From NCBI GenBank assembly GCA_938743325.2, contig OW568889.1, positions 248,001 through 312,000 on the forward strand: a stretch of DNA of 64,000 bases, in the 5' to 3' direction. Below the pieces are notes generated by a model that saw nothing but the letters and a program-made list of their open reading frames with translations, made no database searches and had not been told where the DNA came from. Both the position numbers and the translations under genes were made by a program. This stretch comes from Pycnococcus provasolii (lineage: Eukaryota; Chlorophyta; Pseudoscourfieldiophyceae; Pseudoscourfieldiales; Pycnococcaceae). Every line of letters starts with the position of its first letter. The first letter of the stretch is position 1. Shown here one piece after another: positions 51,314-62,430 of the stretch.

Positions 51314-51580
51314 ATGGCGTGTGCTTTTGTGCACGTCGTGGACGAGGACGACGAAAACAAGGACGTGCGCGCTTCCGACCTCACGCCCGAGCTCAAGGAG
51401 GCGATCGGCGACTACAAGTTCAGTTGTACGAGCACGGGTGTTAAGCTGAACGGCCTGCCTCGTTGCGCCGCGCTTAAGACGCTTACCGGCCGCCTCGTTG
51501 CGCCGACGTTAAGCTCAAGGGCCTGCCTCGTTGCGCCGCGCTTAAGACGCTTACCGGCCGCCTCGTTGCGCCGACGTTAA
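51314..51580 (+). CDS. Small hypothetical ORF running into a repeat array
   Basis: 88 residues from the ATG at 51314. The first 45 residues look protein-like (MACAFVHVVDEDDENKDVRA, then LTPELKEAIGDYKF). From 51439 the frame enters the 68-bp repeat array and becomes compositionally repetitive (CAALKTLTGRLVAP). It is divergent from the GT47 gene by about 230 bp. I do not recognise it; it may be a truncated gene whose 3' part was replaced by repeats. Confidence 0.25.
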   Translation: MACAFVHVVDEDDENKDVRASDLTPELKEAIGDYKFSCTSTGVKLNGLPRCAALKTLTGRLVAPTLSSRACLVAPRLRRLPAASLRRR

Positions 51581-51623
51581 GCTCAGCGGCCCGCCTCGTT
51601 GCGCCGTCGTTAAGCTCAGTGGC
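51439..51623. repeat. Alternating A-B tandem array (35 + 33 bp)
   Basis: Five units that all start GCCTCGTTGCGCCG. Type A continues CGCTTAAGACGCTTACCGGCC (35 bp) and type B continues NCGTTAAGCTCARNGGCC (31-33 bp), in the order A-B-A-B-B, preceded by a partial B unit (GTTAAGCTGAACGGCCT). The 68-bp AB pair is thus a higher-order repeat. Confidence 0.85.
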
Positions 51624-51765: not shown

Positions 51766-52005
51766 CTAATGCGTCGTGACTCGTGACGCGGCAATGCCAT
51801 TGCACATGAACGTCTCGAGGTTTGTGACGCCGAACTCGTTCTTGAGGCGCGCGAGGATGCGGAAGATGCGCTCTTCGTCGCCGACACTAGAGAGACCGAT
51901 AGAGCCATCTTCCGAGTCGCCACCGCCGACAGAAGAGGGGGAAAGACCGGGATCCCCAGGTGCCCAAAAAAAACCCGATTTCCAGTCTACATATATAGCA
52001 ACCAA
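51766..52005 (-). other. Unassigned minus-strand frame upstream of the methyltransferase
   Basis: About 79 codons ending at 51766. The last part has ordinary globular composition (DEERIFRILARLKNEFGVTN, then LETFMCNGIAA), better than the Arg/Ser-rich plus-strand reading of the same bases. It may be a gene fragment. No family recognised. Confidence 0.2.
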
Positions 52006-52078
52006 TTACGGATCCCCATCGTCGGGGGAAAATACAGCAGGGCCCGGAGCATCACTCCGTCCGGCGCATCCGTGTGCG

Positions 52079-53179
52079 ATGCCGGACGCCGACGCCGACG
52101 CCGACGCCGCGTCGCGTCAGCGCCAGCACGTGTCCTCTTCGTATTCTGCAGTGGCTTCGAAGGAAGGGTCGTGCTGCGTCTCCGTCTCACCTTCTCTCGT
52201 AGGATACTCCGCTTCAGACCTCTCTCTCTCAGGGGTTGCCAGCGCAAACCTCGGCGTGGGATGTGGAACGCCAGTTCGTCTCGCTTCGTTGAAGCCTGAA
52301 GAAAGTGTTCTGGACCTAGGATGTGGTGCTGGAGTTGACTGCATACTCGCCGCACAAGAAGTGGGCGAGGCGGGTGCCGTCGTCGGCGTGGACATGACGC
52401 AGGATATGCTTGCAAAGGCGCGAGAAAACTCGAAGCATCTACCCAACGTGAAATACCGACTGGGAGAAATCGAACATCTGCCTGCGACTGACGGCGAATT
52501 CGACGCCGTCATCAGCAACTGTGTCATCAACCTCTCTCCTGAAAAGGGTAAGTCGATCCTCTGACCAACCGTGGCGGATGAACGAGCAATTGTCACTCAC
52601 AACCTATCCATAACACGCTCAATAATAAAAACAGATAAGGTGTGCCGCGAGATGTTCCGAGTGCTGAAGCCGGGAGGACGAATCGCCATCAGCGACGTCG
52701 TGTCGAAAACGGACTTCATGCCAGAGCACCTCCGAACTGCGGAAGCGCTCGCCTGCTGAGTGGCGGGGGCACCCTCGGCCGGTAATTTGGCCGAGTTGCT
52801 CGTCAAGGCGGGCTTTGAGGCGGTGAAAATCGCCATGAAGGATGAGAGTGCCGAGTTCATCAAGCAGTGGATGCCAGACGCCGAGAAGTACGTCGTCGCG
52901 GCTGACGTGACTGCGAGGAAGCCGCAGGTGGCGAAGGTGGCGATGGCAGGAGTGGTTGCGTCGTCCGCAAGCGGCCTTTGTTCGGCGCTCGTCGACACGC
53001 TGCATGACATCTCGACTAACCTGAAGAAGGTGGTGTCGAGTTGGCTGAGTAGTGTGCCGCCGTCGAAGACAACGACAAAAGCGAAAGCGGCAGAGCAGCA
53101 GTGCTGCCCGCCTGCAAGTTCGTGTGGACCGCCGCCGATGCCAGCACGTGCTGTGAAGGCATCTACGGCGTCATCGTGA
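52079..53179 (+). CDS. Arsenite methyltransferase-like protein (ArsM/AS3MT), probable selenoprotein, two exons
   Basis: Coding exons 52079-52547 and 52635-53179, 337 residues, with the in-frame TGA at 52757-52759 read as selenocysteine-198. The SAM fold is clear: ANLGVGCGTPVRLASLKP, VLDLGCGAGVDC, VVGVDMTQDMLAKAREN, YRLGEIEHLPA, VISNCVINLSPEK, then across the intron MFRVLKPGGRIAISDVV. After LRTAEALAC the TGA falls where the family has its conserved arsenic-binding cysteine (GCIAGA / ECLGGA), and VAGAPSAGNLAELLVKAGFE continues the family pattern without a break. A Cys-rich tail (QQCCPPASSC) also fits ArsM. Role: methylation and detoxification of arsenite. I could not find a convincing SECIS by eye. 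Confidence 0.85.
52548..52634 (+). other. 87-nt spliceosomal intron in the methyltransferase gene
   Basis: Donor AAGG|GTAAGT, acceptor AAAAACAG|ATAAGG. Splicing joins NLSPEK to DKVCREMFRVLKPGG in frame, as in related methyltransferases. The acceptor closely matches that of the GT47 intron. Confidence 0.9.
52757..52759 (+). other. In-frame TGA, probable selenocysteine codon
   Basis: TGC-TGA-GTG-GCG-GGG-GCA reads C-U-VAGA; homologues have Cys-Ile/Leu-Ala/Gly-Gly-Ala here. Downstream coding continues for 140 codons with conserved family motifs. Confidence 0.75.
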
Positions 53180-53543
53180 GGCCCACCGCCGCCGCCGAAG
53201 CCCGAGCCCGTTTCGGCGTGCGGTCCTGGCGGCTGACATTAGCTTCACGCGACGTCTGTTTTTTTCTTTTTGGTGTACGTTCCCGTTGACGCCGCATGGT
53301 ACAAACCACATGGTGGCCATGTGAAGGCTGAGGGTGCTTACGATACGCACGCACGTGCACACACCACAGGAGTACTGTACTTACCACGGTAAGGTCCTGT
53401 AATCCATTTTTGTGACATTTTCCAACTTCCTATCGTATGAGTAGTTCCACCCAACTAAGGTGGGCGCGTCTTGGCTAAAATCACGTGTTGTTGATGTATA
53501 ATTTTTACGAAGTAATGTTACAGCTCACGAATAGTATTTATTG
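53180..53543. other. 3' flank of the methyltransferase; expected SECIS region
   Basis: Contains several hairpins: CACATGG/CCATGTG at 53307-53323, CTTACC/GGTAAG at about 53379-53392 enclosed by CAGGA/TCCTG, and CCACC/GGTGG at 53446-53462. A TGTAA signal is at 53398. None shows the full SECIS core (NTGA, apical AA, 3' GA) to my eye. Confidence 0.4.
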
Positions 53544-56500
53544 CTACATCCAGATGGCGACGGGGGGCGCATTCAACACGGCACTGCACCACGGGCAGGT
53601 CACGCCGCCAGTCGGAGAGGCGCTCTCCCACACGCTCATCGCGCAACTCAGGCACTGCTTCGCGTGCAAGCAGGGAAAGAACAAAGCGCGGCGACCATCG
53701 CCGTTGAGCGACAATGCCTCAAAGCACACGCCGCACTCATCCGCCTGAACCGCGCTGCCGTCCGCATCATCCACGTCCGTGTCACGTGCCGATGTGGGAG
53801 GGGCGGCGGCAGCAACATCCACGTCTACAGCAGCGGCCGCCTGCTGCTCGGTATCCTCACCCGCCGCGGATGCAGCAGCAGCCTTAGCCGCAGCACTTTC
53901 ACTGGCGAAATCTGCTGAAGATGTCATCTCGCCCAAGGAGGCGTTGGCACCTTGGCCGTCCGCGTACCCGAGGAAGTCGCCCATGGATGTCCAGCCCGAT
54001 CCCTTGTACGTCGTCTGAGGAGCGCTTGGTATGTCGTGCGGCCTCGCGCCTGACGAACTCCACGCACGCCACTCCTCCCAGCTCTTCAGACCGAGCGTGC
54101 GCACGTACTTGCGCGCATCCTCGAACGTGCGAAACGAGCCGCGCGCACCTTGGCCCTCCGCGTATCCAAGGAAGTCGCCGAACGATGTCCAGCCCGATGA
54201 CGCGTACGTCACATTAGGAGCGCTCGGAATGTCGTGCGGTCGCTTGCCTGACGAACTCCACGCCTCCCACTCCTTCCAGCTCTTCAGGCCGAGCGTGCGC
54301 ACGTACTTGCGCGCATCCTCGAATGTCGCCTTGCCCTTATCATACCCGAGGAAGTCGCTCCAAGACGTCCAGCCCGATGACGCGTACGTCCTAGTAGGAG
54401 TGCTCGGAATGTCGTGCGGGCGCTTGCCTGACGCACTCCACGCACGCCACTCCTTCTCGCTCTTCAGGCCAAGCGCGCGCACGTACGCGCGCGCATCGTC
54501 GAAGCTGTGAGACGAGCCGCGCGCACCTTTGCCCACCGCGTATCCGAGGAAGTCGCCCCAAGACGTCCAGCCCGATGACGCGTACGTCTTCTCAGGATGG
54601 CTCGGTATGTCGTGCGGTCGCGCGCTTGACGAGCTCCACGCCCACCACTCCTTCGAACCCTTCAGACCGAGCGTGCGCACGTACGCGCGCGCATCGTCGA
54701 ATGTGCGATATTCACCAGCCACACTGCCAATCGCGTATCCGAGGAAGTCGCCATACGATGTCCAACCCGATGATTTGTACGCCTGCTGAGGAGTACTCGG
54801 AATGTCGTGAGGTCGCGCGCCTGACGACCTCCACTCATGCCACTCCTCCCAGCTCTTCAGGCCGAGCGTGCGCGCGTACGTGCGCGCATCCTCGAACGTG
54901 CGAAACGTTGTACTCCGCGCCTCCTTGCCCTCTGCGTACCCGAGGAAGTCGCCGAACGACGTCCAGCCTGATCCCTTGTACGTCAGATTAGGATTGCTCG
55001 GTATATTGTCCGGCCTCGCGCCTGACGAACTCCACGCACGCCACTCCTCCACGCTCTTCAGGCCAAGCGTGTGCACGTACTTGCGCGCATCCTCGAACGT
55101 GCGAAATGTTGTACTCCGCGCCGCCTTGCCCTCCGCATATCCGAGGAAGTCGCCGTACGACGTCCAACCCGATGATTTGTACGCCTGCTGAGGAGTACTC
55201 GGAATGTCGTGAGGTCGCGCGCCTGACGACCTCCACTCATGCCACTCCTCCCAGCTCTTTAGGCCGAGCGTGCGCACGTACTTGCGCGCATCCTCGAAGC
55301 TGCGAAACGAGCCGCGCGCACCCTGGCCTTCCGCATATCCGAGGAAGTCGCCCCAAGATAGCCAGCCTGATGACGCGTACGTCCTTTGAGGACTGCTCGG
55401 TATGTCGTGCGGCCTCGCACCTGACGAACTCCACGTGTGCCACTCCATCCGGCTCTTAAGACCGAGCGTGCGCACGTACGCGCGCGCATCCTCGAAGCTG
55501 CGAAACGAGCCAGACACCTTGCCCTCTGCGTATCCGAGGAAGTCGCCCCAAGACGTCCAACCCGTTGACGCGTACGTCACATTAGGAGCGCTCGGAATGT
55601 CGTGCGGCCTCGCGCCTGACGAACTCCACGCCTTCCACTCCTTCTCGCTCTTCAGACCGAGCGCGCGCACGTACTTGCGCGCATCCTCGAAGCTGCGAAA
55701 CGTGCCAGCCACCTTGCCCACTGCAAATCCGAGGAAGTCGCCCCAAGATAGCCAGCCTGATGACTTGTACGTCCTTTGAGGACTGCTCGGTATGTTGTCC
55801 GGCCTCGCGCCTGACGAACTCCACGCTTGCCACTCCTCCTGGCTCTTAAGACCAAGCGTGCGCACGTACTTGCGCGCATCCTCGAATGTGCGAAACGAGC
55901 CGCGCGCACCTTGGCCCACCGCGTATCTGAGGAAGTCGCCCCAAGACGTCCAGCCCGATGACGCGTACGTCACATTAGGCGCGCTCGGTATGTCGTGCTG
56001 TCGCTTGCCTGACGCACTCCACTCCCTCCACTCGTTCTCGCTCTTCAGACCGAGCGTTCGCACGTACTTGCGCGCATCCTCGAAGCTGCGAAACGAGACT
56101 GCCGCCTTGCCGTCCGCGTATCCGAGGAAGTCGCCGTACGATGTCCAGCCCGATGACGCGTACGTCCTTTGAGGACTGCTCGGCATGTCGTGTGGACGCG
56201 CGCCTGACTTGCTCCACGCCTCCCACTCCTTCTGGCCCTTCAGACCGAGCGTGCGCACGTACTTGCGCGCATCCTCGAACGTGCGAAACGTTGTACTCCG
56301 CGCCGCCTTGCCCTCTGCGTATCCGAGGAAGTCGCCGTAAGATGTCCAGCCCGATGACGCGTACGTCACATTAGGAGTACTCGGCAGGTCGTGCGGTCGC
56401 GCACCTGACGAACTCCACGCCGACCACTCCTTCCAGCTCTTCAGGCCGAGCGTGTGCACGTACTTGCGCGCATCGTCGAAGCTGCGAAATGAGCCAGCCA

Positions 56501-58040
56501 CCTTGCCCTCCATGTATCCGAGGAAGTCGGGGTAAGACGTCCAGCCCGATGACGCGTACGTCGTATCAGGACTGCTCGGAATGTCGTGCGGGCGCTTGCC
56601 TGACTTCCTCCACTCCCTCCACTCCTTCTCGCTCTTCAGGCCGAGCGTGCGCACGTACACGCGCGCATCCTCGAAGTTGCGAAACGAGCCGCGCGCACCC
56701 CGATGACCCTCCGCGTAGCCGAGGAAGTCGCCGTACGACGTCCAGCCTGATGACGCGTACGTCGCCTGAGGATGGCCCGGAATGTCGTACGGACGCGCGC
56801 CTGACTTCCTCCACGCCTCCCACTCCTTCTCGCTCTTAAGGCCGAGCGTGCGCGCGTACGTGCGCGCGTCCTCAAAGCTGCGAAACGAGCCACGCGCACC
56901 TTGGCCCTCCGCGTATCCAAGGAAGTCGCCGTACGACGTCCAGCCCGATGACGCGTACGTCGCATAAGGATGGCTCGGTATATCGTGCGGTCGCGCGCCT
57001 GACTTCCTCCACGCCTCCCACTCCTTCTGGCTCTTCAGGCCGAGCGTGTGCACGTACTTGCGCGCATCCTCGAATGTGCGAAACGAGCCAGCCACCTTGC
57101 CCTCCGCAAATCCGAGGAAGTCGCCGTACGACGTCCAGCCTGCTGATTTGTACGTCGTTTGAGGATTGCTCGGAATATTGTCTGGCCTCGCGCCTGACGC
57201 ACTCCACGCCCTCCACTCCTTCTCGCTTTTAAGGCCGAGCGTGCGCACGTACGTGCGCGCATCCTCGAAGCTGCGAAACGAGCCGCGCGCACCTTTGCCC
57301 ACCGCGTATCCGAGGAAGTCGCCGTACGACGTCCAGCCCGATGACGCGTACGTCGCATAAGGTTGGCCCGGAATGTCGTGCGGACGCGCGCCTGACTTGC
57401 TCCACGTCTCCCACTCCTTACAGCTCTTCAGGCCAAGCGTGCGCACGTACACGCGCGCATCCTCGAATGTGCGAAACCAGCCGCGCGCACCTTGGCCGTC
57501 CGCGTAGCCGAGGAATTTGCCGTACGACGTCCAGCCTGATCCCTTGTACGTCAGATGAGGAGTACTCGGAATGTCGTGCGGCCTCGCGCCTGACGAACTC
57601 CACGCCCACCACTCCTTTGCGCTGTTCAGCCCGAGCGTGCGCACGTACGTGCGCGCATCCTCGAACGTGCGAAATGAGCCGCGCGCACCTTGGCCTTCCG
57701 CGTATCCGAGGAAGTCGCCGTACGACGTCCAGCCCGATGACTTGTACGTCACATAAGGATCGCTCGGTATGTCGTGCTGTCGCTTGCCTGACTTACTCCA
57801 AGCCCACCACTCCTTCTCGCTCTTCAGACCGAGCGTGTGCACGTACGCGCGCGCATCGTCGAAGCTAAGAAACGCACCGCGCACTTTCTTTCTCTCGTGG
57901 CACTCGTCATCATCGCCATCATCACCAGGTATACGTTTTCTCTTCACCACCACAGCAGAAGACGAAGACGACATCGTGTGTGTGATGGAGCCAAACTTAT
58001 CAAGTGGGATCGACGACTGTTCGGCAAGGGGATTCGGCAT
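53544..58040 (-). CDS. Twenty-repeat INT_rpt (phage-integrase repeat unit) protein with C-terminal RING finger
   Basis: About 1498 residues from the ATG at 58040 (second ATG at 57974; the frame opens with TTG). After a short basic leader with a KRKR motif come 20 tandem units of about 65 residues: F.sFEDAR.YVRTLGLKS.KEW.AWS.SGARPHDIPS.P..TYASSGWTSYGDFLGYAEG. This is the pattern Pfam calls the phage-integrase repeat unit. Linkers alternate among QGARGS, KVAGS and KAARSTT types. A Ser/Ala-rich spacer leads to a C3HC4 RING: CGVC, FPCLH, CLSC, CPWC. Likely a ubiquitin ligase with a repeat-based binding array. High repeat identity at DNA level implies recent expansion. Confidence 0.88.
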   Translation of the reverse strand: MPNPLAEQSSIPLDKFGSITHTMSSSSSAVVVKRKRIPGDDGDDDECHERKKVRGAFLSFDDARAYVHTLGLKSEKEWWAWSKSGKRQHDIPSDPYVTYKSSGWTSYGDFLGYAEGQGARGSFRTFEDARTYVRTLGLNSAKEWWAWSSSGARPHDIPSTPHLTYKGSGWTSYGKFLGYADGQGARGWFRTFEDARVYVRTLGLKSCKEWETWSKSGARPHDIPGQPYATYASSGWTSYGDFLGYAVGKGARGSFRSFEDARTYVRTLGLKSEKEWRAWSASGARPDNIPSNPQTTYKSAGWTSYGDFLGFAEGKVAGSFRTFEDARKYVHTLGLKSQKEWEAWRKSGARPHDIPSHPYATYASSGWTSYGDFLGYAEGQGARGSFRSFEDARTYARTLGLKSEKEWEAWRKSGARPYDIPGHPQATYASSGWTSYGDFLGYAEGHRGARGSFRNFEDARVYVRTLGLKSEKEWREWRKSGKRPHDIPSSPDTTYASSGWTSYPDFLGYMEGKVAGSFRSFDDARKYVHTLGLKSWKEWSAWSSSGARPHDLPSTPNVTYASSGWTSYGDFLGYAEGKAARSTTFRTFEDARKYVRTLGLKGQKEWEAWSKSGARPHDMPSSPQRTYASSGWTSYGDFLGYADGKAAVSFRSFEDARKYVRTLGLKSENEWREWSASGKRQHDIPSAPNVTYASSGWTSWGDFLRYAVGQGARGSFRTFEDARKYVRTLGLKSQEEWQAWSSSGARPDNIPSSPQRTYKSSGWLSWGDFLGFAVGKVAGTFRSFEDARKYVRALGLKSEKEWKAWSSSGARPHDIPSAPNVTYASTGWTSWGDFLGYAEGKVSGSFRSFEDARAYVRTLGLKSRMEWHTWSSSGARPHDIPSSPQRTYASSGWLSWGDFLGYAEGQGARGSFRSFEDARKYVRTLGLKSWEEWHEWRSSGARPHDIPSTPQQAYKSSGWTSYGDFLGYAEGKAARSTTFRTFEDARKYVHTLGLKSVEEWRAWSSSGARPDNIPSNPNLTYKGSGWTSFGDFLGYAEGKEARSTTFRTFEDARTYARTLGLKSWEEWHEWRSSGARPHDIPSTPQQAYKSSGWTSYGDFLGYAIGSVAGEYRTFDDARAYVRTLGLKGSKEWWAWSSSSARPHDIPSHPEKTYASSGWTSWGDFLGYAVGKGARGSSHSFDDARAYVRALGLKSEKEWRAWSASGKRPHDIPSTPTRTYASSGWTSWSDFLGYDKGKATFEDARKYVRTLGLKSWKEWEAWSSSGKRPHDIPSAPNVTYASSGWTSFGDFLGYAEGQGARGSFRTFEDARKYVRTLGLKSWEEWRAWSSSGARPHDIPSAPQTTYKGSGWTSMGDFLGYADGQGANASLGEMTSSADFASESAAAKAAAASAAGEDTEQQAAAAVDVDVAAAAPPTSARDTDVDDADGSAVQADECGVCFEALSLNGDGRRALFFPCLHAKQCLSCAMSVWESASPTGGVTCPWCSAVLNAPPVAIWM

Positions 58041-58986
58041 AGGTATTCGGCATACCACCAGCAAAGCCCTCCTTGCACACCGGCCGGCCCACCTTGCGGC
58101 CCACCTTGCATGCAAGCCCTTGCCCCCCGGATCCCCCGGCCGGCTGTTTCTTGCATCACGAGTGTTGCTTCACGTGGTCAAGAATGACCATTGACCATTA
58201 GAATACAGTACATTCCAGATTCCAGTATGAGGGATCCCGAACGCACAGCGATGGGTCGTGCAACTTGCCGGCCGGCAAAGCAACCCTTCTCGAGTAAAAC
58301 TCGCGGCCGGCCGGTGATTGGGAAAAGAGCTCTAAGAGGGGGCAACTTAGTGCTTAGTCTAAGGAAGAGCTCTGTCAGTGTGTGTGTGTGTGTGTGCACT
58401 GTGCAAGAAACACTCGACTATGAAATATGTGTGTGCCCGTTCGCCCTTGAACCGGTATTCCCATTTGTATTTTGAACATTTGTATTTCCCTTCTGTGTGC
58501 GATGCGATGCGATGCGATGTCGCTGCCAGATACATGTCGCTTGCTTGGTGGTTTTTTTTTAATAAAGAGACTTGTGTGTGTGTGGGGGCCACTGGGTCAC
58601 TGGGCCACTGGGCCAATGTGCCACTGGGCCACTCTGGGCCACTTTTATGTGTGTGTGTGCGCGACTTGTGTTGTGTGCGACAGTAGAACTGTTGAGCTTG
58701 CAGGATAGCTTGCACTGACTGACTGACTGACTGCTTGTGTGTGTGTGTGTGGAGCAGCAGGCAGCGTGTATGTAGCAGTGAGTGTTTGTGCGCATATGTA
58801 TGTCTCGCCTTTACTTTCCATCATATGTGCTCATCGGGCTCATGCAGGGGCGCTCCTTAACTCGCTCGTTCAAGGCCTTGCTTCATCTTCATTTTGATTG
58901 CTTTCATTCTTCACGTTGCATTGCATTGCACTCATCGTGCAGACATTTGCCTCGTCTCGTCTCAACAACAAAGTAGTTAACTGCTC
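58041..58986. other. Divergent intergenic region rich in simple repeats
   Basis: Upstream region of both the INT_rpt-RING gene and the kinase-like gene. It contains several GCCGGCCGG motifs (58075-58315) and the microsatellite cluster listed separately. No gene seen. Confidence 0.5.
58377..58755. repeat. Cluster of micro- and minisatellites
   Basis: (GT)n at about 58378-58398; (GCGAT)4 at 58499-58519; (GT)n at 58573-58584; a CACTGGGC minisatellite at 58588-58642 (about six copies); (GT)n at 58650-58661; (ACTG)n at 58714-58732; (GT)n at 58736-58751. Confidence 0.85.
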
Positions 58987-61900
58987 ATGTCGCTCTCGCT
59001 CGCGATGGAGTCAACAGTTCCGTCGTCGCGGATGGAGTGCGCGCTCACTGCAATCACCAAGACGTCAAAAGCTTCGGCGCAAAGAGGAAACGCGGGCCTG
59101 CCATGGTCGCCGTCGTACAACCACAAAAATAACGCAGGAATGAGCAGCCAACACACGTCGTCTAGCACAAATCTGCACTCTGGTGCACCTGCTTCGTCCA
59201 AATCCTCGTCGGAATTAACCATACAAGAACGCGTCTTTCTCGTCGAAGCACTCAAGCAAAACTTCCTGTTTCGAGGATTCTCAAACAGCGTGCTCGAAAG
59301 CATCGTCAGGCACATGAAGTACCGCACATACCCGCAGAACGGAACGCCCGTCGTCATGCAGGGGGAGGAGGGGGACAACATGTACATCGTCGACCACGGA
59401 AAACTCGACGTCTACGTCGGCACAGGAGGAACCTCGCGCAAAATTCTTCAGTACTCACGAGGCGCGTCGTTTGGGGAACTCGCCCTGATGTACGACTGCC
59501 CGCGAAGCACGACGGTGAAAACCGCAACGCCGTTCGTCAGCGTGTACGCGCTCGACAAGTCAAACTTCAAAACAACCGTAAGTCGCATGAGAGAACGCCA
59601 GCGTCATATGCTGCTCTTCCACGAAATACCTCTGCTGAAGGACAACCTCAACCGCGCACAGCTTGTCGAGCTGTGCTCGCGCGCCGTGCTCCGGCGACAC
59701 GACGGAGGCATGCCCAGCGCCGATGGCAAGGCGGCTTACGCACCCATCTTCGCCAAAGGGCTGTGCGAGGCTCGCGGCACGAATCACACGCACATCCGCC
59801 GTGCGTCGCTCACGACGCGGCTGAATCAAGCGGCACAGCCTCGAGCGCTCGCCGGCGCGCCGCTGTACATCATTCAGGTTGGTCGCGTGCTCGAGTGCGA
59901 ATCTGCCGAGGATGCAGAGCAAGGACGTGGGCACATGCTGCACGCAGGCGATGTCATCGGCATCGACGCGTTTCTCGAGGGAAAGCCGCTCGCGTACAAC
60001 TACTACACGCGCGAGACGACACTGCTTCTGCAGCTCAAGGATGACGAGAATGACAACAACGGCGCCAGAAAGAAAAATGCAGCTCTGCCAATGGCGTGGG
60101 CATCGGCGCCGTCCTCAAACGGCAAAGGAGACGGCTCTAGCACTTCGTCCGGGGCTCTCAGTCCTGGCACGCTTCGAGCTCTGCTGCGTGAGCCGCTTCG
60201 GATGTACGGCAGGATGTGCGCGTTGCGTCAGTCTTGCGCAGGCAACCTGCAATTCTCGTGGCTCAGCCGAGACATGCTCAACCGATTGGCCAAAGATCAC
60301 ATGATCGAAATCACGCTGCCCGAGAGGACTGTGCTCGCGCGGCGTGGGACCATTGCTGACAGGTTGACAATCGTCGTGTCAGGAAGTGTGAGCACGAGCC
60401 GAGGAAGTATGGACGACGACGACGACGACGGTGGTGGTGGTGGCGAAGGCAGCACGATGATGAAAAGGGAACCTCAGGAGGCAACGACACAAGAAGTGCT
60501 GGCCGGTGCTGATCAGGGTAGGCGATTCGGTACCGGCGTGCTCGTGGCAACCGTGGGATGTAGCCTCGTTACGCACTTGCCAGAAATGGGGGATGTCGTC
60601 ACGACGTCGACATGCAAGGCATTTCAAGTTGCGCCGGGCATCGCAACAGCACCCACGCCCGTTGCGGCAACACCGAAAGTCGGTGGTACAACCAAGCGTG
60701 CGAGCACGCTGGGCTCATCTCGTAGGCCAGCGGAGAAGTTGGCGGCGTTTGCGCAGGTATGTTCCGAGCTTCATCGCAAGGGTGCGGCACATGCACTGGC
60801 TCAGGCACTTGACGCAATGGGAGGAATCAGCCTTGGTGCGAAGGAGGTGGAGCGAGTGGCCCAGGACTTTCGCGCACTTCCATTCGAGCCCGGAGACACG
60901 CTTGTTCGGGAGGGGGCGCCGGGAGAAAAGTTCTTCCTACTCGCCTACGGCGAGGTGGAGATCAGCGTTCGCACGATGCCAACCGAGTCTATCAACTCGA
61001 CAGGCCAGGTGGTTGGTGTGAGCCGGAATCTGCAGCAGGAGGCGTCGTCCAAGGAAAATCCGCGTCGTGCGACACCTGCCACCGGAGTGCTGATGAAATC
61101 TGCTCTGGGTGCTATTGCGAATGTTCCACGTGCATCAAATGCGCGCAGGCTTACGAGGTGTTCCACCGAAGATACTGGCACCGTGTCGCGACGTGCGACG
61201 CGCGTTAGCCAGACGCTCACTCGATTGAAGGGTGGAAATGGTGCGTACTTCGGCGAACGGGCACTCGTGGAAAAGAAGCCTCGAGCAGCCACCGTGCGCG
61301 CTCTCACGCACGGAATGTGCTACAGCCTTTCCCGTGATGCCTTCGAGCGACACTTCGGGAAACTGCGCGACCTGATGCGTGCCGCTGCCAAACGAGAGGA
61401 CCTTGCGCAGAAGGAGCGCAACATCTCGACGGACAATCTTGACGTGGTGCGCACGATCGGCATCGGCACATTCGCGCGCGTAAGGCTTGTGAAGGACTCG
61501 TTGACGGGTAACGTGTATGCGCTCAAGACGATGGATCGTCGGCGCATCACCAAGTATCGCCATCAGCACCGCGTGCAGAACGAGCGCGCGATCCTAGCCG
61601 CGTGCTCGCATCCCTTCATCACACGGCTTGTCAAGACGTTCAAGGATGCCAGCGACGTGCACATGCTGCTGGAGGCGCACCTTGGGGGTATGATCTTTCG
61701 TTTTCTCGATGAGCTGCACGAGCAGACGTTCGACGAGGCATCTGCGCGCTTCTACGCAGGCTGCATCATAAGCGCGTTAAGCTACCTGCATGCTCGCGGC
61801 GTGGTGTATCGCAACATTCGACCGGGCAACATCTTGCTCGGCGCTGACGGGTACGCGCGTCTGATTGACTTTTCCTTCGCGAAAACGATCGGGTTCGACG

Positions 61901-62430
61901 ATCGCACATTCAGCGTTGTCGGAGCTCCCGACTATGCGGCGCCCGAGATGATTTTGCGCAAAGGCCACGCCTTTGGCGTCGACTGCTGGGGGCTAGGCTG
62001 CATGATCTTCCAGATGCTGACAAACACGTCGGCATTCGCGCCGAGAAGGAGTGGTCCGGCGTACGAAAGTCAGGTGTACCGCAACGTGCTCGACGGATCT
62101 CGTGCGGCAATGGGTCGACACCTCAGCGTGCAAGCGCGAGGCATTGTCGACGCTCTGCTCGTTGTTGACGAGAATAAGCGACTTGGCCATGTCAGCGGCA
62201 TCCAAGACGTGAAAGAGCATGGTTGGTTCTGGCGCATTTCGTGGGCAGATTTGGAAGCTCGCCGCCTTCCTCCACCAGCTACGGTCATACCTGGAGAATC
62301 GAATTTCGACTTTTTCGAGGATGACAACTTGGATTGGAGGCCAGGTTGCGACTCTGGTGGCAAGACGGTGGTGACTGCAGCAGCACGTGCCGACGACGAC
62401 GTTGAGTGCTCGTGGGACTCGGAGTTTTAA
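58987..62430 (+). CDS. PKG-like cyclic-nucleotide-binding protein kinase, probable pseudokinase
   Basis: 1147 residues. The N-terminal region carries several cNMP-binding folds. The first, at about 95-205, is canonical (GEEGDNMYIVDHGKLDV, FGELALMYDCPRSTTV). Two degenerate ones lie at about 225-350 and 440-600. The last, at about 620-800, again has a good cassette (GERALVEKKPRAATV). The AGC kinase domain spans about 815-1090 with G-loop GIGTFARV, VAIK-lysine Lys847 and APE in YAAPEM. The HRD loop reads YRN (Asn943 instead of Asp), K168-equivalent is Arg, and DFG is DFS (961-963). FFEDDNLDW is the AGC tail. Cyclic nucleotide sensing is likely; phosphotransfer is doubtful. Confidence 0.88.
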   Translation: MSLSLAMESTVPSSRMECALTAITKTSKASAQRGNAGLPWSPSYNHKNNAGMSSQHTSSSTNLHSGAPASSKSSSELTIQERVFLVEALKQNFLFRGFSNSVLESIVRHMKYRTYPQNGTPVVMQGEEGDNMYIVDHGKLDVYVGTGGTSRKILQYSRGASFGELALMYDCPRSTTVKTATPFVSVYALDKSNFKTTVSRMRERQRHMLLFHEIPLLKDNLNRAQLVELCSRAVLRRHDGGMPSADGKAAYAPIFAKGLCEARGTNHTHIRRASLTTRLNQAAQPRALAGAPLYIIQVGRVLECESAEDAEQGRGHMLHAGDVIGIDAFLEGKPLAYNYYTRETTLLLQLKDDENDNNGARKKNAALPMAWASAPSSNGKGDGSSTSSGALSPGTLRALLREPLRMYGRMCALRQSCAGNLQFSWLSRDMLNRLAKDHMIEITLPERTVLARRGTIADRLTIVVSGSVSTSRGSMDDDDDDGGGGGEGSTMMKREPQEATTQEVLAGADQGRRFGTGVLVATVGCSLVTHLPEMGDVVTTSTCKAFQVAPGIATAPTPVAATPKVGGTTKRASTLGSSRRPAEKLAAFAQVCSELHRKGAAHALAQALDAMGGISLGAKEVERVAQDFRALPFEPGDTLVREGAPGEKFFLLAYGEVEISVRTMPTESINSTGQVVGVSRNLQQEASSKENPRRATPATGVLMKSALGAIANVPRASNARRLTRCSTEDTGTVSRRATRVSQTLTRLKGGNGAYFGERALVEKKPRAATVRALTHGMCYSLSRDAFERHFGKLRDLMRAAAKREDLAQKERNISTDNLDVVRTIGIGTFARVRLVKDSLTGNVYALKTMDRRRITKYRHQHRVQNERAILAACSHPFITRLVKTFKDASDVHMLLEAHLGGMIFRFLDELHEQTFDEASARFYAGCIISALSYLHARGVVYRNIRPGNILLGADGYARLIDFSFAKTIGFDDRTFSVVGAPDYAAPEMILRKGHAFGVDCWGLGCMIFQMLTNTSAFAPRRSGPAYESQVYRNVLDGSRAAMGRHLSVQARGIVDALLVVDENKRLGHVSGIQDVKEHGWFWRISWADLEARRLPPPATVIPGESNFDFFEDDNLDWRPGCDSGGKTVVTAAARADDDVECSWDSEF

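What the first reader, a model, noticed from the sequence alone, without database searches (positions are those of the whole stretch)
52079..53179. Arsenite methyltransferase with in-frame TGA at the conserved arsenic-binding cysteine: probable selenoprotein
After splicing the 87-nt intron, the methyltransferase frame meets one TGA and then continues for 140 codons with clear family sequence. The TGA sits in ALAC-U-VAGA, aligned with the Cys of GCIAGA/ECLGGA, one of the cysteines that binds As(III) in ArsM/AS3MT. Replacing that Cys by selenocysteine would be chemically meaningful, since selenolate binds arsenic strongly. A random nonsense mutation would be unlikely to hit exactly a Cys position and leave the rest intact. 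I recall reports of Sec-containing methyltransferases in algae but cannot verify them here.
Basis: partly seen in the sequence, partly recalled or inferred. Interest (0 to 1): 0.92.

Follow-up and report, generated by a model that had tools for sequence, protein, structure and literature searches.

The report
Algal selenocysteine arsenic methyltransferase gene
A marine green alga encodes an arsenic-methylating enzyme in which a UGA codon, normally a stop, almost certainly inserts selenocysteine at the arsenic-binding site, as reported for other algae; a second UGA in the protein's tail may do the same, which would be new.

Summary
Confirmed. The gene (ATG 52079, 87-nt intron 52548-52634) encodes a bacterial-type ArsM with an in-frame TGA at 52757 (codon 198), at the third As(III)-binding cysteine (CmArsM C224). 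The genome matches Pycnococcus provasolii and holds tRNA-Sec(UCA), SecS, SelD, eEFSec and other genes with TGA at selenocysteine positions. Of 236 aligned homologues, 62 end exactly at this codon, 3 have Trp there and 168 Cys; near-identical public sequences keep the frame after it. So codon 198 is almost certainly selenocysteine. Not new in kind: selenocysteine ArsM is listed as experimentally verified in prokaryotes and was reported for eukaryotic algae in 2007-2008. One SECIS-like element lies in the 3' UTR (53273-53348); it meets published spacing rules but has an atypical core (UUGA, not the GUGA of the elements I assigned to this alga's other genes). A third TGA (53234) is probably the stop.

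The parts
52079..52547 (+). Exon 1 of the ArsM gene: N-terminal Cys pair (C32/C33), As-binding C62 and C148, SAM-binding motif
   Evidence: a protein named arsenite methyltransferase [Pycnococcus provasolii] (P0003) starts at the same Met
52548..52634 (+). Intron, 87 nt, GTAAG...AG, phase 1
   Evidence: joining restores the ArsM alignment
52635..53233 (+). Exon 2, coding part up to TGA3: methyltransferase C-terminal half plus Pro/Cys-rich tail (up to 53176 if TGA2 is the stop)
52757..52759 (+). TGA1, codon 198: selenocysteine at the As(III)-binding position (CmArsM C224), context ALAC-U-VAGAP (UxxG)
53177..53179 (+). TGA2, codon 338: candidate second selenocysteine (SSUGPPPPP, resembling the upstream SSCGPPP unit) or the ordinary stop
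   Evidence: undecided
53180..53233 (+). 18 open codons after TGA2, GPPPPPKPEPVSACGPGG
   Evidence: motif resemblance beyond chance, codon usage neutral
53234..53236 (+). TGA3, codon 357: probable terminator (37 nt before the SECIS base); next stop TAG at 53240
53273..53348 (+). Candidate SECIS: helix I, core UUGAC/UGAG (UGA 53287-53289, GA 53330-53331), 13 nt to AAA, mini-stem (form 2)
   Evidence: published spacing rule in PMC2375036

Best explanation
The gene encodes a nuclear, bacterial-type As(III) S-adenosylmethionine methyltransferase (ArsM) of the green alga Pycnococcus provasolii in which the third arsenic-binding cysteine is selenocysteine. Mechanism, inferred: the ribosome meets UGA at codon 198; the 3'-UTR SECIS recruits SECIS-binding protein and eEFSec with Sec-tRNA(UCA), and Sec is inserted. 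In the enzyme the selenolate joins C62 and C148 to hold As(III) while SAM methylates it. Shown here: the frame, the residue match, the conservation of the position and the genome's Sec machinery. Inferred: SECIS function, decoding and arsenic chemistry.
For: Frame and position: (C62/C148/codon 198 align with CmArsM C72/C174/C224). Conservation: first search, 115 Cys, 3 ending at the codon, 2 Trp of 120 listed; both searches pooled, 62 of 236 end exactly there, 3 Trp, 168 Cys, 1 Leu, 2 irregular gene models (the second search used a profile that included truncated forms, and both lists are capped at the best 120, so 62 is not a frequency). Post-TGA halves P0123 (26 members, 99% identical), P0124 (4, 95%) and P0125 (1, 93%), from ENA contigs without organism names, keep the frame and differ by substitutions and in-frame indels. 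Sec machinery. Other selenoprotein genes. SECIS candidate.
Against: Rfam found no SECIS in 52000-55000, but it also found none in six TGA-containing gene loci of this genome, so this is weak. The candidate's core is UUGA/UGAG, whereas the six SECIS-like elements I assigned in this genome all begin GUGA (two of them, L017 and L021, were settled partly by looking for GTGAA, so the contrast is partly of my making). Its 87-nt fold is not more stable than shuffles (z 0.64; 151 of 200 fold at least as well) and the SECIS fold is 1.3 kcal/mol above the best fold. Only protein ends, not the DNA, of the 62 relatives were seen. No transcript, protein or 75Se data were available.
Confidence: 0.95

Rival explanations
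1. Double (or triple) selenoprotein: TGA1 and also TGA2 (53177) are read as Sec, giving a tail with Cys and Sec in CGP/UGP repeats; TGA3 (53234), too close to the SECIS, terminates (or is also read, ending ..GGUH at TAG).
For: The TGA2 context SSUGPPP resembles the upstream SSCGPPP, and the frame after it holds SACGPGG. [SA]CGP arises in 10 of 5000 shuffles of the 54-nt piece and after 0 of 1832 other TGAs in the window and 0 of 2364 in other loci. Alignment score to the upstream tail: 52 of 2000 shuffles and 5 of 1833 after-TGA pieces (itself included) reach it. An unnamed relative's tail has Cys at the aligned place (P0127, KSECQPKPRKP). 6 of 7 other TGA-containing genes meet TAA/TAG as their next in-frame stop, introns not considered. 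TGA2 lies 110 nt, TGA3 53 nt before the SECIS core; a published minimum is 51-111 nt (PMC3316567 passage).
Against: Codon usage of the 18 codons is neutral (log-odds 0.0; frame +1 gives 1.2; exon 2 mean 3.2). The piece is low-complexity and the motif was chosen after looking. P0126 does not align Cys with TGA2. P0123 and P0124 stop at this point, as an ordinary stop would give. One of the 7 other genes (L020) meets TGA next.
Confidence: 0.4
2. TGA1 is a nonsense mutation and the gene is a pseudogene or makes a truncated 197-aa protein.
For: The public protein P0003 ends there.
Against: 59 further sequences from the second search end at the same codon; the downstream half is kept in near-identical public sequences with in-frame changes; it is an As-site residue; the genome has Sec machinery.
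Confidence: 0.02
3. UGA is read through by another amino acid (near-cognate tRNA, general reassignment) or removed by splicing or editing.
For: Two relatives have irregular gene models around the codon (P0170, P0180); one has Leu there (P0128).
Against: TGAs in SelT-, SelW-, SelM- and GPx-like genes of the same genome sit where Sec is known in those families (positions recalled); the position is Cys in 168 of 236 homologues; tRNA-Sec is present.
Confidence: 0.02

Closest known systems
Eukaryotic algal methyltransferase selenoprotein (Ostreococcus, Thalassiosira; PMC2375036); PMC2398784 names arsM (PRK11873) among selenoproteins shared by prokaryotes and eukaryotes
   Same: Same enzyme family by text; aquatic algae; predicted Sec. 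Homologues found here that end at this codon include one named Thalassiosira exigua (P0155).
   Different: I did not see their sequences or Sec positions (supplements not available). This member has a long Pro/Cys-rich tail with another TGA; several relatives seen here carry long N-terminal extensions (P0011 with a thioredoxin match PF00085), and the three with Trp at the codon (P0010, P0011, P0129) end right after the domain.
Prokaryotic selenoprotein ArsM (UxxG, NF008823, WP_011987699.1; listed as experimentally verified in PMC13188914, passages)
   Same: ArsM family, Sec in a UxxG motif (here UVAG)
   Different: Eukaryotic gene with an intron; the SECIS must act from the 3' UTR; tail TGAs
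Methyltransferase/UXPK-star double selenoprotein (NF047649)
   Same: Listed with two Sec and a UxxG motif (PMC13188914); NF047649 hit at 160.6 bits
   Different: Well below its cut-off of 460; by its name a U-x-P-K-stop end, which this gene lacks
CmArsM / AS3MT (PDB 4fr0, 8xt7)
   Same: Homologous domain and the three As(III)-binding positions
   Different: Cys at the third position. The same genome also has a Cys-type AS3MT-like copy (L001, GECLAGALY)

Membership tests
ArsM / AS3MT arsenite methyltransferase | SAM-methyltransferase domain matching ArsM models | tested here: met
   NF008823 E 2.4e-76, 256.8 bits, best of 60 families but narrowly under its curated cut-off of 263 with Cys placed at the TGA codons; the five best PDB hits are arsenite/arsenic methyltransferases
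ArsM / AS3MT arsenite methyltransferase | Conserved As-binding positions C72, C174, C224 (CmArsM; PMC5552862 passage) | tested here: met
   C62, C148, codon 198 align; Cys at 62 and 148 in 236 of 236 listed homologues; the third is TGA here
ArsM / AS3MT arsenite methyltransferase | Methylates As(III) with SAM | not testable with these tools
   needs biochemistry
Eukaryotic selenoprotein | In-frame TGA at a position that is Cys in homologues | tested here: met
   for TGA1; TGA2 only suggestive
Eukaryotic selenoprotein | SECIS element in the 3' UTR | tested here: inconclusive
   One candidate in the 3' region; spacing rules met (13 nt UGA-AA, 25 nt AA-GA); the same scan gives 18 hits in 128 kb (itself included) and a hit in 19 of 1000 shuffles of the UTR; no Rfam match; atypical core; 3' UTR extent not known
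Eukaryotic selenoprotein | Sec machinery in the genome | tested here: met
   tRNA-Sec TCA, SecS, SelD, eEFSec E 1.8e-150 to PDB 5izk; SBP2 and PSTK not searched
MTase/UXPK-star double selenoprotein (NF047649) | Score over the curated cut-off and U-x-P-K at the end | tested here: not met
   160.6 bits against 460; ends GPGG or GGUH

The most novel reading that the evidence does not exclude
A eukaryotic ArsM with two selenocysteines decoded by one 3'-UTR SECIS: one in the arsenic site and one in a mobile Pro/Cys-rich tail (CCPP-SSCGPPP-SSUGPPP-SACGPGG) that could hand over arsenic or reduce the catalytic selenolate, with a third UGA used as the stop because it lies too near the SECIS. Three UGAs in one message would then be read Sec, Sec, stop by position alone.
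Probability: 0.35. Interest if true: 0.65.

Novelty: new member of a known kind. Interest (0 to 1): 0.42.

Why it matters
It documents a selenocysteine arsenic methyltransferase in a marine green alga for which I found no paper on selenoproteins, and shows that a public protein record ends at the catalytic residue (P0003). It links selenium supply to arsenic methylation in marine algae. If the tail TGA is also Sec, the gene would be a compact natural test of how position relative to the SECIS decides between Sec insertion and termination.

Tried and rejected
Rfam on the region and on six selenoprotein loci found no SECIS, so I wrote structural scanners. My first scans of three minus-strand loci (L015, L019, L021) used the wrong orientation and were redone. 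A MAFFT alignment of the seven SECIS segments was poor, so no covariance model was built. A viral-contig scan for relatives found none. The best SelB-model hit (L027) reads as an EF-Tu (my reading); L029 is eEFSec. No clear SECIS was found for one GPx gene (L020). Codon usage did not support translation past TGA2. I rejected pseudogene, splicing-out and general reassignment for TGA1. A third Sec at 53234 is possible but unlikely. A paper search on minimal UGA-SECIS distance led to PMC3316567.

Full report
What was checked. The gene is on the plus strand: ATG 52079, exon 1 to 52547, an 87-nt GT..AG intron (52548-52634), exon 2 from 52635. The spliced frame reads ...LRTAEALAC-TGA-VAGAPSAGNLAELLVKAGFE..., with TGA at 52757 (codon 198), then 139 sense codons to TGA 53177 (codon 338), 18 more to TGA 53234 (codon 357), one more (CAT) and TAG 53240. 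A public protein named arsenite methyltransferase [Pycnococcus provasolii] (P0003, 195 aa) matches at 99% over 55% of the query and ends just before codon 198. The assembly searched here has 32,333,900 bases in 46 contigs, one of them 24,277 bases. The published P. provasolii CCAP190/2 genome has 32.2 Mb in 44 chromosomal pseudomolecules plus a 24.3-kb mitochondrial and a plastid genome (PMC11130579, abstract). I take the window to be that species.

Family. With Cys placed at the TGA codons, the best NCBIfam match is NF008823 arsenite methyltransferase (E 2.4e-76, 256.8 bits, just under the curated cut-off of 263), and the five best solved structures are arsenite or arsenic methyltransferases. 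The alignment to CmArsM puts C62, C148 and codon 198 on C72, C174 and C224 (numbers counted by me). PMC5552862 (passages read) names these three as integral to arsenite binding.

Conservation of the position. In the first protein search the 120 listed homologues (of 7334 matches) were aligned: 115 have Cys at codon 198, 3 end just before it (P0003, P0041, P0085) and 2 have Trp (P0010, P0011). A second search used a profile of those five sequences, so it favours such forms. Of the 236 distinct listed proteins of both searches (five hits of the half-protein search and my own two translations left out), 62 end exactly there (one of them, P0187, with Trp instead of Cys as its last residue), 3 have Trp, 168 Cys, 1 Leu (P0128) and 2 have irregular gene models (P0170, P0180) (the script printed 167 Cys and mis-scored P0018 as Thr, which is Cys by eye). 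Names in the second list include Thalassiosira exigua (P0155, ends at the codon). That the ends are TGA, and that Trp is TGA read under another code, is my inference: only proteins, not the DNA, were available. Searching with the half after codon 198 found five proteins, among them P0123 (139 aa, 99% identical, 26 member sequences), P0124 (95%, 4) and P0125 (93%, 1), from ENA contigs without organism names. P0123 and P0124 begin at codon 199, with the GTG after TGA read as a start; the three differ from the window by substitutions and in-frame indels. Downstream sequence that keeps its frame is what translation through the TGA predicts.

Sec machinery. tRNA-Sec: 69.5 bits, anticodon TCA. SecS 249 bits. 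SelD 265 bits. eEFSec: an ORF in L029 has PDB 5izk, Selenocysteine-specific elongation factor, as its best match at E 1.8e-150. TGA-containing genes: both Rdx hits (SelT- and SelW-like by my reading), 4 of 5 GPx hits and the one Sep15/SelM hit; the four AhpC-TSA_2 hits have none. SBP2 and PSTK were not searched.

SECIS. Six of the seven TGA genes gave a SECIS-like element downstream, all with GUGA at the 5' core; that of L017 is weak, those of L017 and L021 were settled partly by looking for GTGAA, and none was clear for L020. A stricter form-2 scan finds the elements of L015, L016, L019 and L022, that is 4 of 7 loci (for L017 it finds another place). In the ArsM 3' region (53100-54700) it finds one, UGA at 53287, AA 13 nt later, GA at 53330, with a mini-stem. 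The same scan gives 18 hits in the 128 kb of both window strands (this one and one in ArsM exon 2 included), 16 in 116 kb of other loci, and a hit in 19 of 1000 shuffles of 53180-53560, 7 at least about as stable. The published rule is NTGA, 10-13 nt to AA, 15-39 nt to GA (PMC2375036, passage), which it meets. Against it: the core is UUGA, whereas that paper reports an unpaired G before the core in all but a few Ostreococcus elements; the fold is no more stable than shuffles (151 of 200 fold as well); and a different fold is 1.3 kcal/mol better (the gaps for the other six are 0.0-5.7). I give it about 0.65. The convergent ORF on the minus strand ends at 53544, so the 3' UTR may be short (no transcript seen).

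The second TGA. The tail reads EQQCCPPASSCGPPPMPARAVKASTASS-TGA-GPPPPPKPEPVSACGPGG-TGA. SSUGPPP resembles SSCGPPP, and the post-TGA2 piece holds SACGP. The motif [SA]CGP occurs in 10 of 5000 shuffles of the piece and after 0 of 1832 other TGAs in the window and 0 of 2364 in other loci (an earlier run gave 4 of 2000, and an alignment score to the upstream tail is reached by 52 of 2000 shuffles). One unnamed relative, P0127, has Cys at the aligned place; P0126 does not. The next in-frame stop of the other TGA genes is TAA/TAG in 6 of 7 cases, TGA in L020. Against: codon usage is neutral, 0.0 against 1.2 in frame +1 and 3.2 on average in exon 2; rank 343 of 1833. The motif was picked after looking, and P0123 and P0124 end here. 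TGA2 is 110 nt and TGA3 53 nt before the SECIS core; PMC3316567 (passage) cites 51-111 nt as a minimum for Dio1. I give TGA2 about 0.4 and TGA3 about 0.1.

What is known. PMC13188914 (passages) lists arsenite methyltransferase (UxxG, one Sec) as experimentally verified in prokaryotes, and fusions with two or three Sec. PMC2375036 (passages) lists a methyltransferase selenoprotein in two Ostreococcus species and Thalassiosira. PMC2398784 (passage) names arsM among selenoprotein families found in both prokaryotes and eukaryotes, the latter mostly aquatic. PMC7539508 (section 5 and passages) lists MT, methyltransferase, among its abbreviations. PMC9312934 (passages) lists arsM too. The first Sec is therefore a new member of a known kind. 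A two-Sec eukaryotic ArsM did not appear in the listings of searches or the passages read; supplements and subscription papers were not seen.

Verdict. The main result is ordinary in kind but solid; the possible second Sec is the open part.

Noticed in passing
window 53544-58115 (-): 1523-aa ORF made of about 20 tandem 198-nt units (Pfam INT_rpt PF14882, 87 bits) with a Cys-rich, RING-like C-terminus by eye; convergent with the ArsM gene.
   Followed up: partly
window 58987-62430 (+): 1147-aa ORF with three cyclic-nucleotide-binding stretches and a protein kinase domain, like cGMP-dependent kinases (likeness recalled).
   Followed up: no
window 51440-51618: Tandem repeat with 68- and 33-nt periods upstream of the ArsM start.
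   Followed up: no
L020 1597, 1969: GPx gene with a TGA at the Sec place whose frame also seems to end in TGA (1969), with no clear SECIS found by my scans.
   Followed up: partly
L001 1072-2460 (-): Cys-type AS3MT-like paralogue (462-codon open frame, GECLAGALY, ending GGSCC) in the same genome; Sec and Cys forms coexist.
   Followed up: partly
P0125: A 93% identical public sequence whose tail ends at PPASS, exactly where the window has a TGT Cys; either a contig end or a stop such as TGA there.
   Followed up: no
P0011, P0130, P0176: ArsM sequences with long N-terminal extensions, P0011 with a thioredoxin match (PF00085), before a Sec-type ArsM domain; perhaps diatoms.
   Followed up: no
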